This document shows, in pieces, positions 36,489 to 40,433 of a DNA stretch of 64,000 bases. The DNA is from Psychrobacter luti (GTDB lineage Bacteria > Pseudomonadota > Gammaproteobacteria > Pseudomonadales > Moraxellaceae). Position 1 is the stretch's first letter. Every line of letters begins with the position of its first letter. The notes beneath the pieces were generated by a model that saw only the letters and a program-made list of their open reading frames with translations, ran no database searches and was not told the DNA's origin. The DNA is taken from positions 434,001 to 498,000 of the forward strand of contig NZ_JACHXL010000002.1 of the NCBI RefSeq assembly GCF_014192115.1, written 5' to 3'. The translations under genes were made by a program, and so were the position numbers.

Positions 36489-37763
36489 TCACATAAAAGG
36501 CAATTTGGTAAATATCTGCAAGATAGTGGCGTTAACGATATCGACGAAGAACGCACCAACCATCGGCACAATCAAAAACGCCTTATGTGATGGCAAGTAG
36601 CGATCGGTGACCGCCTGCATATTGGCAATCGCCGTCGGCGTTGCGCCCATACCAAAACCACAATGTCCCGCTGATAGTACGGCAGCATCATAATCTTTAC
36701 CCATGACCTTAAAGGTAATAAAGTAAGCATAACCAATCATCAGTAGCGTCTGTACCAGTAAGATAATTAATACCGGTCCTGCTAGGTCAGTCAACTGCCA
36801 GAGTTTCAATGACAATAGCGCCATCGCTAAGAACAAGCTTAAAGAGGCGTTACCAATGACGTCGATAGCACGGTCAAACATATCAAAATTGAATACCATG
36901 GTTAAGGTATTACGTAGAATCACACCGCCTGCCAGCGCCCATACGAAAGTAGGTAGCTCAAACCAAGTATCTTGCGCCAACAAAGTCATGATGTCAGCGA
37001 ACGCCAATGCCGCGGCAAATAGTGCCAAGGATTCAATGGTAGAGGAGGCGGTGATAAGACGAATGTTATCAGGCTTCTCAAACATCTCCTTATTACCATG
37101 TACTTCCTCTTCGTTATGCTTGGTACTATAGAGTGATTGCTCGCCAGCAAGTCGTTCAACCTCACTCGGATTTGGATTAGCCGCCGCTGGTTTTAAACCA
37201 AGTTTTTTAATCAAATGACGGGCAACCGGACCACCGATGACGCCACCTGCAACCAAGCCATAAGTGGCGACCGCGATACCAAGTGTCGTGGCACCAACCA
37301 CGCCATATTGCTCTTCTAAGGTAATACCCCAAGCGCCTGCCGTACCGTGTCCACCAGTTAGAGCTATCGAACCTGTTACCAAGCCGAGGAGTGGGTCAAG
37401 TCCAAGCACACTTGCCATCGCCACGCCTACGACATCTTGTAAGATAATAAATACTGATACCACGATAGTGAAAATCATTAGTGGCGAGCCACCTGCCTTA
37501 AGCCTACTAAAATCAGCACTGAGTCCGATAGAGGCAAAAAACATCAGCATCGTTGCGGTTTGCAGCCCTTGATGGAAATTAAAGCTATAGCCCCAAACGA
37601 TATTAAGAATATAGACGACAATTGCTGCCACCAAACCACCGGCTACTGGCTCTGGAATATTGAAGTCTTCTAGGAATTTAATCCTTTTGACTAAAAAGCG
37701 TCCAAGCAAGAGCACTAAGGTGGCCAATATCAAGGTGTAGTAGCCGTTGAGGGTGATTTCCAT
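36489..37763 (-). CDS. gltS: Sodium/glutamate symporter
   Basis: A 424-residue inner-membrane ESS-family carrier that imports glutamate with Na+. Two inverted halves each carry a re-entrant loop with Gly-rich sequences (TGGHGTAGAWG and GHCGFGMGATPTA). N-terminal LNGYYTLILATLVLLLGRFL is family-typical. The central loop is long and charged (NPSEVERLAGEQSLYSTKHN region). AAAGGA lies 7 nt before the ATG at 37763. The window also encodes an ABC system for the same amino acid (gltIJKL). Confidence 0.93.
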   Translation of the reverse strand: MEITLNGYYTLILATLVLLLGRFLVKRIKFLEDFNIPEPVAGGLVAAIVVYILNIVWGYSFNFHQGLQTATMLMFFASIGLSADFSRLKAGGSPLMIFTIVVSVFIILQDVVGVAMASVLGLDPLLGLVTGSIALTGGHGTAGAWGITLEEQYGVVGATTLGIAVATYGLVAGGVIGGPVARHLIKKLGLKPAAANPNPSEVERLAGEQSLYSTKHNEEEVHGNKEMFEKPDNIRLITASSTIESLALFAAALAFADIMTLLAQDTWFELPTFVWALAGGVILRNTLTMVFNFDMFDRAIDVIGNASLSLFLAMALLSLKLWQLTDLAGPVLIILLVQTLLMIGYAYFITFKVMGKDYDAAVLSAGHCGFGMGATPTAIANMQAVTDRYLPSHKAFLIVPMVGAFFVDIVNATILQIFTKLPFM

Positions 37764-37791: not shown

Positions 37792-37835
37792 AACCTAAAT
37801 TCGGGATAAAGCTGGTTTTATCTCGAATTTAGGTT
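37792..37835 (-). terminator. Very long hairpin between the barstar gene and gltS
   Basis: The stem has 19 consecutive pairs. The outer 12 bp (AACCTAAATTCG / CGAATTTAGGTT) are perfect, the inner 7 bp have one G-T pair, and the loop is 6 nt. It lies 12 bp past the barstar stop on the minus strand and 29 bp before the gltS start. The following T-tract is weak (AATTTATATTT), so it may terminate, stabilise the upstream RNA, or act as an operator. Confidence 0.6.
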
Positions 37836-37847
37836 CTGGTAATCTCG

Positions 37848-38225
37848 CTATTCGCATGCATCATCTGACGCCGCAACAATCCACAACTGCGGCTTGCCAA
37901 AATCTTTATAGGCGTCCTCAATGATACGCTTAAAGACATTAAAGTCCTCAGTATTAATTTTCTCTACCCCATTTAAGTAAAGCGTGAGGTGAGTGATATC
38001 ACTATCGGTCAAACAGTCCCAAGCGCTGTCCCAATTATGGGCAAAATAGTCGGGAAAATTGGCTACTTTAGCTAAGCTGTTTAGCAACGTCTCTTTATCT
38101 AAAATAACGCCAATTGGAATGTTAAGCGCTTGCTCGGGAATGCTGTTAATGAGAGCGGAGTCGTGCTTATTGACGCTGTTTTGGTCAACGCAGTTTTGAT
38201 TAACATAGTAAATAGCTTGGCTCAT
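37848..38225 (-). CDS. Barstar family ribonuclease inhibitor
   Basis: A 125-residue cytoplasmic protein with a barstar domain from about residue 37. FPDYFAHNWDSAWDCLTD (about 57-74) matches barstar's inhibitory helix, and D66 and D70 align with the two Asp residues that enter the RNase active site. The C-terminal LWIVAAS strand is also typical. The ATG is 1 nt after the RNase-fusion stop, with an AGGTG ribosome site inside the end of that gene, so production is probably coupled. It is predicted to bind and block the RNase domain encoded just upstream. Function is inferred from family and gene pairing. Confidence 0.9.
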   Translation of the reverse strand: MSQAIYYVNQNCVDQNSVNKHDSALINSIPEQALNIPIGVILDKETLLNSLAKVANFPDYFAHNWDSAWDCLTDSDITHLTLYLNGVEKINTEDFNVFKRIIEDAYKDFGKPQLWIVAASDDACE

Positions 38226-38226
38226 A

Positions 38227-38970
38227 TCAGTTCACCTGCAATTGTCGGAAGCTATCATAATGGTCGACGGTCAAATAATAAATGGTCGGTGGATGACCGC
38301 CGGTGACAATGCGCCGTGCACCGCGATGGGAAACCCCCGGCGTAGGCACGGTATATTCGCGGTAATAACCTTGCGACTGGGCGGGTAGCTTGCCTTCGCG
38401 ATTATAAAAGGTTGTGCCATCTTTATTAGGGTAAGGAAAAGGACCACCTTGCTTAATAAGTGCCAGCGTCTGGTCGATTTGCGCATCACCTGTGATAGCT
38501 GCGGAACCTGAACTGCTGGTTTTAGAGGCCGTCTGCGATATAGAAGTTGCTGGCGTGCTATCTGTAAATAAACTGGATTTTAAATCCCCAAAAAAGTAAA
38601 CCGCAACGGCAATAAGGGCGATGACACTCAATAGGGTAGAGAAGCCACTTTTCTTGTTTTGGCTACCACGAGTATTTTTATATCGATTGTTTTTCTGCTG
38701 CGCATTATCTAGGTTGTGATGCGCTGAAATTGCTGCTGAATTTGATGCTGATGTTTCTAAAATACTCAATTCATCAGAGGTGACTTCAGTGGCGCGTAAT
38801 TGATTTTTTTCATTACGTTGGCTGTTAAAATAGACACGTTGACCTTCGCTTATAGGCTGCGATAAGCGTACGGTGCTGATATGAAAGAAGACATCTTCAC
38901 TTTGATTGTCTACCTCAATAAAGCCGTAGCCTTTATCGGCATTCCAGTGCTTAATTTTGCCACTTTGCAT
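38227..38970 (-). CDS. Cold-shock domain / transmembrane / RNase Sa-type ribonuclease fusion
   Basis: 247 residues. Residues 1-65 form a cold-shock domain with RNP1 KGYGFI (13-18) and RNP2 VFFHIS (27-32). A basic linker (about 92-108) precedes one transmembrane helix (about 109-129). A Ser/Thr-rich linker follows to about 165, then a guanyl-specific ribonuclease domain (about 165-245). GPFPYPNKDGTTFYNRE, GYYREYTVPTPG and RGARRIV resemble Streptomyces RNase Sa, and E205, R220 and H237 fit its catalytic Glu, Arg and His. The domain has no Cys, so the RNase Sa disulfide is absent. Charges suggest the N-terminus is cytoplasmic and the RNase periplasmic. AGGAAG lies 8 nt before the ATG. Confidence 0.9.
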   Translation of the reverse strand: MQSGKIKHWNADKGYGFIEVDNQSEDVFFHISTVRLSQPISEGQRVYFNSQRNEKNQLRATEVTSDELSILETSASNSAAISAHHNLDNAQQKNNRYKNTRGSQNKKSGFSTLLSVIALIAVAVYFFGDLKSSLFTDSTPATSISQTASKTSSSGSAAITGDAQIDQTLALIKQGGPFPYPNKDGTTFYNREGKLPAQSQGYYREYTVPTPGVSHRGARRIVTGGHPPTIYYLTVDHYDSFRQLQVN

Positions 38971-39048: not shown

Positions 39049-39082
39049 AAAAAAACGCCAGCAATTAAGCTGACGTTTTTTA
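39049..39082 (-). terminator. Intrinsic terminator of proA
   Basis: 13-position stem with one mismatch (AAAAAACGCCAGC / GCTGACGTTTTTT), a 6-nt loop and T-run on the minus strand, 50 bp past the proA stop. It separates proA from the RNase gene. Confidence 0.85.
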
Positions 39083-39131: not shown

Positions 39132-40433
39132 CTAGGCGCGGGTTTCACCGTGTCCGTAAACGATCCATTTTTGCGAGGTTAAGCCTTCAAGTCCAACTGG
39201 TCCACGTGCATGGATTTTATCGGTTGAGATACCGATTTCTGCCCCAAGCCCATATTCAAATCCATCAGCAAAACGGCTAGAGGCGTTAATCATAACGCTT
39301 GCCGAATCAACTTCACGGATAAAGCGTTGCGACTTGGTATAGTTGTCGGTAATGATAACGTCGGTATGCTGGCTGCCGTGAGTATTGATATGCTCAATCG
39401 CTTCATCGATACCGGACACCACTTTAATCGCTAAAATAGGTGCAAGATACTCTGTATCCCAGTCTGCGCTAGTCGCCGCTGATAGATGACCTTGAAGGGT
39501 AGCATTGTCATTTAAAATAGCTTGTGATTTGTCATCAAGGCGCAGTTGCATGGCATCATCAGCTTTTACGATGGCTTCAGCGATTTTCGGTAATAACTCA
39601 TTGGCGATGGCTTCATCGACTAATAACGTCTCCATGGTATTACAGGTGCCATAGCGATGGGTTTTGGCATTGACGCTAACTTTGATAGCAATGTCGGCAT
39701 CGGCGTCGCTATCGATAAAGGTATGGCAGTTGCCATCTAGATGCTTAATCACAGGAACGCGCGCATCACGGCTGATACGTTCAATCAAACCTTTACCGCC
39801 GCGTGGCACGATAACATCGACATATTCCGTCATGGTAATCAGCTCGCCAACAGCAGCGCGGTCAGTGGTCTCTAATACTTGCACGCTATGTTCAGATAGA
39901 CCAACCTTGTTTAAGCCTTTTAAAATACATTTCGCAATCGCTTGATTGGATTCAAAGGCTTCAGAGCCACCACGTAAGATAATGGCGTTACCGGACTTTA
40001 GCGCAAGCGAAGCCGCCTCCAAGGTGACGTTGGGGCGCGACTCATAAATCATACCGACCACACCAAGTGGCACGCGCATTTTACCCAAATGAATACCTGA
40101 TGGCTGATAGGTCATATCTGTAACTTCGCCAATAGGATCGGGCAGCGCGGAGACGTCTTTTAAACCTTGCAACATACCGTCGAAGCGTGCATCGTTTAGC
40201 TCTAGGCGATCTAGTAAAGCGGCGTCTAAGTTATTTTTTGCACCTTTATCCATATCGACTTTATTGGCCGCTAAAATATCGGCTTTGGCACTTTTTAACT
40301 CGTCATAGATTGCCATCAAGGCGGAATTTTTATCGCCAGTATTAGCCGCCGCTAGTGCTCGTGACGCGGCACGTGCTTGCTGACCAACGCTTTGCATATA
40401 AGCGGTAACATCTGTGGTATTCGATTGACTCAT
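39132..40433 (-). CDS. proA: Gamma-glutamyl phosphate reductase
   Basis: Second enzyme of proline synthesis, reducing gamma-glutamyl phosphate with NADPH to glutamate semialdehyde. The 433-residue aldehyde-dehydrogenase-like protein has [41 protein letters not shown] (each run shorter than 20 in the core) and the catalytic Cys in [13 protein letters not shown]. No proB is adjacent, so it is unlinked here. Start ATG at 40433. Confidence 0.96.

What the first reader, a model, noticed from the sequence alone, without database searches (positions are those of the whole stretch)
37848..38970. Membrane-tethered cold-shock-domain/RNase Sa-type fusion with a coupled barstar inhibitor
The upstream gene encodes, in order, a cold-shock RNA-binding domain, a basic linker, one transmembrane helix, a Ser/Thr linker and a guanyl-specific ribonuclease domain with Glu, Arg and His in RNase Sa positions (E205, R220, H237). 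The downstream gene, 1 nt away, has the barstar inhibitory helix with two Asp at the positions that fill the RNase active site. Secreted RNases paired with barstar are known, and barstar is known to inhibit RNase Sa. A fusion of such an RNase to a cytoplasmic cold-shock domain across a membrane segment is not an arrangement I know. By charge the RNase would face the periplasm, so the inhibitor would protect the cytoplasm during synthesis. Possible roles (inferred): breakdown of periplasmic or incoming RNA, a contact toxin with immunity, or a cold-linked RNA turnover module.
Basis: partly seen in the sequence, partly recalled or inferred. Interest (0 to 1): 0.72.

Follow-up and report, generated by a model that had tools for sequence, protein, structure and literature searches.

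The report
Membrane RNase with RNA-binding tail, inhibitor
Most species of the cold-loving bacterium Psychrobacter carry a protein predicted to have an RNA-binding cold-shock domain on one side of the cell membrane and an RNA-cutting enzyme on the other, encoded next to the enzyme's likely inhibitor; the parts are familiar, but the combination seems undescribed and may be a way to make a dangerous enzyme safely.

Summary
On the minus strand of a Psychrobacter-type genome, 38227-38970 encodes a cold-shock domain (CSD), basic linker, one predicted membrane helix, Ser/Thr linker and an RNase Sa-type domain; a barstar gene starts 1 nt after its stop. Active-site residues of RNase Sa and both key barstar Asp are present. 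It is not a chance join: 82 of 105 genus genomes have the RNase locus, 76 with an intact fusion; proA and gltS flank it in 68 of 82 stretches read. CSD, helix and RNase are under purifying selection (dN/dS 0.05-0.07), the linkers less so (0.35-0.39). Charge bias puts CSD inside and RNase outside in 76 of 76. The fusion also occurs in a second gammaproteobacterial family (2 genomes, one without detectable barstar). One Psychrobacter genome lacks only the CSD. Relatives elsewhere are mostly short exported RNases with adjacent barstar. Best reading: an inner-membrane-anchored periplasmic guanyl-RNase of the simple barnase-barstar kind with an added cytoplasmic CSD; barstar guards the cytoplasm. 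What the CSD does is inferred: probably it binds RNA and docks synthesis at the membrane. Contact-toxin and defence readings are little supported. New variant of a known kind.

The parts
38227..38970 (-). CDS of the CSD-TM-RNase fusion, 247 aa plus stop
   Evidence: Pfam; 76 full-length fusions in the genus, window's included
38779..38964 (-). cold-shock domain, residues 3-64, with KGYGFI and VFFHI nucleic-acid-binding motifs (motif names recalled)
   Evidence: PF00313 E 4e-14; dN/dS 0.062; model matches Csp structures
38650..38778 (-). basic, variable linker, residues 65-107
   Evidence: mean net charge +4.9 in the 20 residues before the helix; dN/dS 0.347 for residues 67-107
38587..38646 (-). 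single predicted membrane helix, about residues 109-128
   Evidence: best 19-residue hydropathy 2.25 at 109-110; dN/dS 0.071 for residues 108-127
38239..38487 (-). RNase Sa-type guanyl-specific ribonuclease domain, residues 162-244
   Evidence: PF00545 E 1.4e-21; RNase Sa3 E 9.5e-24; catalytic columns invariant in 76 of 76
37848..38225 (-). barstar gene, 125 aa plus stop, start codon 1 nt after the RNase stop
   Evidence: PF01337 E 4.3e-13; a start codon 1 nt after the stop in 78 of 82 genomes; F57, P58, N64, D66, D70 invariant in 33 aligned barstars
39050..39081 (-). terminator-like hairpin between proA and the fusion gene
   Evidence: 1 found; 1.5 expected in shuffles, so the count is no evidence; 13-pair stem with T run
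37792..37835 (.). 19-nt inverted repeat between barstar and gltS, possible terminator
   Evidence: not reported as terminator-like by the scan
39132..40433 (-). proA (gamma-glutamyl phosphate reductase; name by recall), upstream neighbour
   Evidence: seen in 75 of 82 stretches
36489..37763 (-). gltS-like sodium/glutamate symporter (name by recall), downstream neighbour
   Evidence: seen in 71 of 82 stretches

Best explanation
It is a simple RNase-barstar pair of the barnase/RNase Sa kind in which the RNase is held in the inner membrane by an internal signal-anchor and carries an extra cytoplasmic cold-shock domain at its N-terminus. Steps: (1) the two genes are translated one after the other from one message (inferred from the 1-nt spacing); (2) the CSD folds in the cytoplasm and binds RNA, the helix enters the membrane N-in/C-out, and the RNase domain passes to the periplasm (predicted from charge and hydropathy; RNA binding inferred); (3) in the periplasm the RNase cuts RNA at G (inferred from the conserved active site); (4) barstar stays in the cytoplasm and blocks any RNase domain that folds before export (inferred from family knowledge and its conserved Asp pair). 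The CSD is most likely an RNA-binding docking module that brings the message, its ribosome or other RNA to the membrane so that the RNase is exported before it can act inside. That last step is the least certain.
For: Domains and active site. Topology: charge bias 76 of 76. CSD, helix and RNase under purifying selection while the linkers are relaxed (176 pairs, 168-176 usable per region). A start codon exactly 1 nt after the RNase stop in 78 of 82 (76 ATG, 2 GTG), 0 nt in 2, 4-nt overlap in 1, ATT there in 1 (the barstar frame of G048 and G075 is broken). Barstar sequence beside the RNase in 82 of 82 genomes, and a barstar match in only 1 of the 23 genus genomes without the locus, that one below the curated cut-off and beside a different toxin-like gene. 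Relatives outside: short exported-looking RNases; a barstar motif or frame downstream in 24 of 27 loci and in 17 of 23 named loci. G007 keeps helix, RNase and barstar but lacks the CSD, so the exported RNase looks like the core and the CSD an addition. G994 has an intact fusion and no barstar match at E<=0.001 in its genome, which fits an RNase that acts outside the cytoplasm. proA tree (94 sequences): fusion-bearing genomes in one clade after three lineages without it (support 0.86), with later losses; barstar fragments remain in 4 genomes and a short RNase fragment in G103.
Against: No activity, topology, RNA binding or inhibition has been measured. The membrane helix is predicted with low model confidence. 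The barstar model matches barstars only weakly (best E 1.0e-3, TMt 0.43-0.66), though the sequence profile is clear. The fusions have no Cys in 73 of 76, unlike RNase Sa with its disulphide (recalled). G994 could have a barstar too divergent to detect; if it has none, the inhibitor is not indispensable. The linker after the helix could be cut so that the RNase is released. The lack of the CSD in G007, and a stop between CSD and helix in G045, show that the docking role, if real, is dispensable.
Confidence: 0.6

Rival explanations
1. Contact or secreted toxin with immunity: the RNase is delivered to competitors and barstar protects the producer and its kin.
For: Barstar is a known immunity protein of barnase-type polymorphic toxins (PMC3482391, passages seen). 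G072 in the same genus has a large toxin-like protein with a C-terminal RNase and a barstar-like neighbour.
Against: Same chromosomal place between proA and gltS in 68 of 82 stretches, the rest not fully read or different; clade-wise distribution; dN/dS 0.053 on the RNase; a membrane anchor and no delivery domain; no plasmid or phage record covers 80% of the fusion (0 of 43 and 0 of 3 matching records).
Confidence: 0.08
2. Defence or stress switch: the CSD senses phage or cold-induced RNA in the cytoplasm and the RNase is released or activated, barstar being the antitoxin.
For: CSDs occur in predicted RNA-targeting defence proteins (CoCoNuTs, PMC11090510, passages seen); the CSD gives weak hits to PADLOC CSD_V (E 5e-10) and to the retron Se72 effector model (31.4 bits against a cut-off of 82).
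Against: The predicted topology puts RNase and CSD on opposite sides; housekeeping-type neighbours; present clade-wise in 82 of 105 genus genomes rather than scattered; both hits cover only the CSD.
Confidence: 0.1
3. Plain nutritional RNase: a periplasmic, anchored RNase that recovers nucleotides from environmental RNA; the CSD is a solubility or stability tail without a role in RNA docking.
For: Relatives are mostly short exported-looking RNases with barstar; the CSD is missing in G007.
Against: The CSD is nearly as constrained as the catalytic domain (0.062 against 0.053), and its binding-motif residues are conserved (75-76 of 76 in 8 of 9 columns listed), which a passive tail would not need.
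Confidence: 0.22

Closest known systems
Simple barnase-barstar / RNase Sa gene pairs (PF00545 + PF01337)
   Same: Guanyl-RNase domain with the Sa active site, a hydrophobic export segment before it, adjacent barstar
   Different: An additional cytoplasmic CSD before the membrane helix, so that the export segment is internal
CSD-TM-Excalibur proteins of other Moraxellaceae (L203, L204, L208)
   Same: CSD, linker, single hydrophobic helix, linker, C-terminal domain (Pfam run on the L203 protein only)
   Different: The far-side domain is Excalibur (PF05901), not an RNase; their CSDs do not group with those of the fusion
CSD-DUF1294 membrane proteins (L002 in the same genome)
   Same: N-terminal CSD joined to membrane segments
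   Different: DUF1294 membrane domain instead of an extracytoplasmic enzyme
Polymorphic toxins with Tox-Barnase and Imm-Barstar
   Same: RNase fold and inhibitor family (PMC3482391, passages)
   Different: No secretion scaffold, no diversification, conserved place
Free cold-shock proteins (Csp) of bacteria
   Same: CSD fold and motifs
   Different: Those solved are free proteins of about 65-80 aa

Membership tests
RNase Sa / N1-T1 ribonucleases (PF00545) | profile match above cut-off | tested here: met
   77.3 bits against 24
RNase Sa / N1-T1 ribonucleases (PF00545) | catalytic Glu, Arg, His and guanine-site Asn/Glu | tested here: met
   aligned residues; invariant in 76 of 76
RNase Sa / N1-T1 ribonucleases (PF00545) | fold | tested here: met
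   Foldseek 1mgr, TMt 0.81, rmsd 1.1
RNase Sa / N1-T1 ribonucleases (PF00545) | guanyl-specific RNase activity | not testable with these tools
   needs a purified-protein assay
Barstar (PF01337) | profile match above cut-off | tested here: met
   49.5 bits against 23.4
Barstar (PF01337) | two inhibitory Asp (D35, D39 of barstar; numbering recalled) | tested here: met
   D66, D70 align with them and are invariant in 33 aligned sequences
Barstar (PF01337) | fold | tested here: inconclusive
   the 27 best Foldseek matches are barstar chains, but with E 1.0e-3 to 1.2e-2 and rmsd 4-9
Cold-shock domain (PF00313) | profile and conserved nucleic-acid-binding motifs | tested here: met
   52.7 bits against 27; motif columns 14-18 and 28-30 in 75-76 of 76, column 31 I or V in 75 of 76
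Cold-shock domain (PF00313) | RNA or ssDNA binding | not testable with these tools
   needs a binding assay
Simple barnase-barstar pair | RNase gene with adjacent inhibitor gene | tested here: met
   82 of 82 genus loci
Simple barnase-barstar pair | exported RNase | tested here: inconclusive
   predicted from charge and hydropathy only
Polymorphic / CDI toxin | large secretion scaffold and variable C-terminal toxin | tested here: not met
   247 aa, no such domain found; low dN/dS
Retron Se72 CSD effector | NCBIfam cut-off | tested here: not met
   31.4 bits against 82

The most novel reading that the evidence does not exclude
CSD-linker-TM is a reusable RNA-docking anchor: the cytoplasmic CSD binds the protein's own nascent message (or the ribosome-bound RNA) and holds translation at the membrane, so that a toxic far-side domain is exported as it is made. 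The same layout carrying an RNase, an Excalibur domain or DUF1294 in Moraxellaceae would then be one mechanism with several payloads, and barstar coupled at 1 nt the fail-safe.
Probability: 0.18. Interest if true: 0.78.

Novelty: new variant of a known kind. Interest (0 to 1): 0.52.

Why it matters
It puts an RNA-binding domain and an RNA-cutting enzyme, by prediction, on opposite sides of one membrane, in one protein kept by selection in most genomes of a genus, and adds a natural set of variants (fusion with barstar, fusion without detectable barstar, RNase without CSD, decayed locus) that makes two questions testable: what a membrane-tethered cold-shock domain does, and how a cell exports a potent RNase safely. 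Eight searches of the held library that bear on it listed nothing whose title or abstract start describes this architecture; the listed papers were not read through.

Tried and rejected
Contact-toxin reading: set low because of conserved place, low dN/dS and lack of a scaffold. Plasmid or phage origin: 43 plasmid records match, none over 80% of the query (15 rows seen, all on the RNase part); 3 phage records match, all on the CSD part. Defence reading: PADLOC gave a generic CSD model and two matches near E 1e-3 to unrelated-looking models. Gene capture from CSD-DUF1294 or CSD-Excalibur proteins: an unrooted CSD tree of 27 chosen sequences splits the fusions of both families from the others (0.95), but midpoint rooting puts two DUF1294 CSDs beside them, and trees of about 66 residues are weak. 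The promoter scan found no consensus promoter on the minus strand. A model of the RNase-barstar complex was not made. The listings were mostly off target; only PMC3482391, PMC11090510 and PMC8546975 were opened, each for passages.

Results that sit less well: a strict motif pattern counted 69 of 76 RNases and 78 of 82 barstars; the RNase shortfall was not traced sequence by sequence, while the alignment columns of the active-site residues are 76 of 76. Barstar exceptions: G048 and G075 have broken frames, G076 and G087 substitutions at the motif. The 6 of 82 left out of the 76: G095 (contig end), G075 and G098 (frame breaks), G087 (run of N), G045 (in-frame TAA in the linker), G007 (no CSD). 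Two of the 76 have one changed residue in the CSD motif (G025 and G014). Flanks: 14 of 82 stretches do not show both proA and gltS; some are at contig ends or short, others (for example G005, G076, G077, G078) may have other neighbours and were not followed. Not read for a CSD: L225 of the 14 other-genome matches, and 5 of the 28 newly matched genomes; the output was cut, so part of the loci L079-L090 was not seen there (their matches begin at query residue 105 or later, outside the CSD). In the proA tree several inner nodes are weak (0.26-0.55), and G062 is not in it.

Full report
What is there. On the minus strand at 38227-38970 lies a 247-codon gene, followed after one base by a 125-codon gene at 37848-38225. 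The first protein has a cold-shock domain (residues 3-64), a basic linker, one strongly hydrophobic stretch (about 109-128), a Ser/Thr-rich linker and an RNase Sa-type domain (162-244); the second is a barstar. The best solved relatives are RNase Sa3, Sa2 and Sa. In the alignment to RNase Sa, E205, R220 and H237 fall on E54, R69 and H85, and N190, E192 and R216 on N39, E41 and R65. The AlphaFold2 model gives confident CSD and RNase domains that match Csp and RNase Sa structures, joined by low-confidence linkers and helix. The genome is of Psychrobacter type: the closest named fusion is from P. maritimus (92%); the window's own record is unnamed.

Is it more than chance. The genus search (105 genomes) together with the PF00545 search of 346 family genomes puts the RNase locus in 82 of 105 genus genomes, G072 not counted because its match is a different, larger protein. 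76 of the 82 encode an intact fusion of 231-269 aa; the other six are cut, broken, masked or lack the CSD. In the stretches read, proA is seen in 75 of 82, gltS in 71 and both in 68; the rest are partly short stretches or contig ends and were not followed. Over 176 pairs of sequences (168-176 usable per region) dN/dS is 0.062 for the CSD, 0.071 for the helix, 0.053 for the RNase, and 0.347 and 0.387 for the two linkers. So each domain is under selection, and the fusion is not an assembly or gene-calling error.

Topology. In all 76, the 20 residues before the helix are more positive than the 20 after it (mean net charge +4.9 against -2.5). This predicts CSD inside, RNase outside. Short-form relatives, named ones such as Stenotrophomonas ginsengisoli, Lysobacter tolerans and Leptothrix discophora and unnamed ones, mostly begin with a signal-peptide-like or anchor-like segment before the RNase (judged by eye and hydropathy). 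A barstar motif lies downstream in 24 of 27 unnamed loci and a barstar-like frame in 17 of the 23 non-Psychrobacter loci. The internal helix is therefore most simply the old export segment with a CSD put in front.

The inhibitor. A start codon lies exactly 1 nt after the RNase stop in 78 of 82 genomes; the other four have 0 nt (2), a 4-nt overlap (1) and an ATT at that place (1). In G048 and G075 the barstar frame is broken. Barstar's two key Asp (D66, D70 here) are invariant in 33 aligned barstars from Psychrobacter and distant genomes. Barstar sequence is found beside the RNase in 82 of 82 genomes and a barstar match at E<=0.001 in only 1 of the 23 genus genomes without the locus; that one, in G072, scores below the curated cut-off and adjoins the toxin-like RNase gene. 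Outside the family, G994 has an intact fusion but no barstar match at that threshold in its genome, and the next gene found is a tRNA-Gly. The barstar model is of moderate confidence and matches known barstars weakly.

Distribution and history. Of the 346 family genomes, which leave about 241 outside the genus, two outside it had PF00545: G131, with a 134-aa exported-looking RNase and an adjacent barstar and no CSD, and G301, with a 2144-aa open frame. Of 369 class genomes 15 matched, the window's own included; 13 of the other 14 were read and one (G493) is a CSD-TM-RNase fusion with a barstar next to it. Its family (12 genomes) gave a second fusion, G994, and its order (32 genomes) no more. 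Of 398 phylum genomes 35 matched, 28 of them new; 23 of the 28 were read and none showed a CSD motif. Of the 57 loci, 34 are Psychrobacter; the matches of the other 23 begin at query residue 101 or later, so they show no CSD there. A proA tree of 94 sequences places the fusion-bearing genomes in one clade (support 0.86) after three lineages without it; one genome (G030) and a group of seven inside that clade lack it. Four of these eight keep barstar fragments between proA and gltS, and G103 also a 20-residue RNase fragment (E 0.001; a similar one in G072 is at E 0.02), so at least these lost the pair. Whether the gain came by transfer between the two families is open; an unrooted CSD tree keeps the fusions of both families on one side (0.95), but it is a short alignment of 27 chosen sequences.

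The CSD. It is nearly as conserved as the enzyme, with its binding-motif residues nearly invariant, yet G007 lacks it while keeping the first residues, helix, RNase and barstar, and G045 has a stop between CSD and helix. It is therefore useful but not needed for the rest to persist. Other Moraxellaceae have the same layout with an Excalibur domain at the far end, and a CSD-DUF1294 membrane protein occurs in the window's own genome. This makes a docking function for the CSD the most economical guess, but no call tests it.

Compared with what is known. Simple barnase-barstar pairs are described as possibly an incipient toxin-immunity gene order without notable polymorphism (PMC3482391, passage). 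This pair meets the sequence tests for that kind made here, with one new part, the cytoplasmic CSD; export itself is only predicted. Searches of the held library for CSD with barstar, CSD with DUF1294, Psychrobacter with barstar and a mixed query returned no paper, and CSD with Excalibur two that are off target by title and abstract start; only open-licence PMC papers are held, so an unseen description is possible.

Verdict. Observation confirmed; interpretation partly supported; a new variant of a known kind, with a well-conserved but unexplained RNA-binding half.

Noticed in passing
L203, L204, L208 (other Moraxellaceae): CSD, linker, single hydrophobic helix, linker and an Excalibur-like C-terminus in one protein (Pfam run on L203 only): the same layout with another far-side domain.
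   Followed up: partly
L002 (same genome, G000:C2:566681): CSD fused to a DUF1294 membrane protein.
   Followed up: partly
L148 (G072): Toxin-like large protein with C-terminal RNase domain followed by a barstar-like gene, in a genome that lacks the CSD fusion.
   Followed up: partly
L161 (G301): 2144-aa open frame with a weaker PF00545 match (E 7.5e-6), possibly a large toxin.
   Followed up: no
37848-38225 and L034:4782-5231: The barstar N-terminal extension is rich in Asn/Gln and varies by repeats of about 'INQN' between close species (intact barstars of about 105 to 150 aa with the start 1 nt after the RNase stop).
   Followed up: no
L145 (G101): Linker of the fusion expanded into a run of Ser-Asn repeats.
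   Followed up: no
L192-L195 (other Moraxellaceae): 333-358 aa open frames with a C-terminal CSD behind a domain that looks like a NYN/PIN-type nuclease (label by eye, not tested).
   Followed up: no
L201, L202: Reverse order: several hydrophobic helices followed by a C-terminal CSD.
   Followed up: no
L170, L171 (G071, G001): At the proA-gltS interval a different gene (about 235 aa, transporter-like by eye) sits in place of the RNase pair.
   Followed up: no
plasmid records H4-H8: Five enterobacterial plasmids carry an RNase Sa-like stretch 50% identical with no annotated gene there in the PLSDB table.
   Followed up: no
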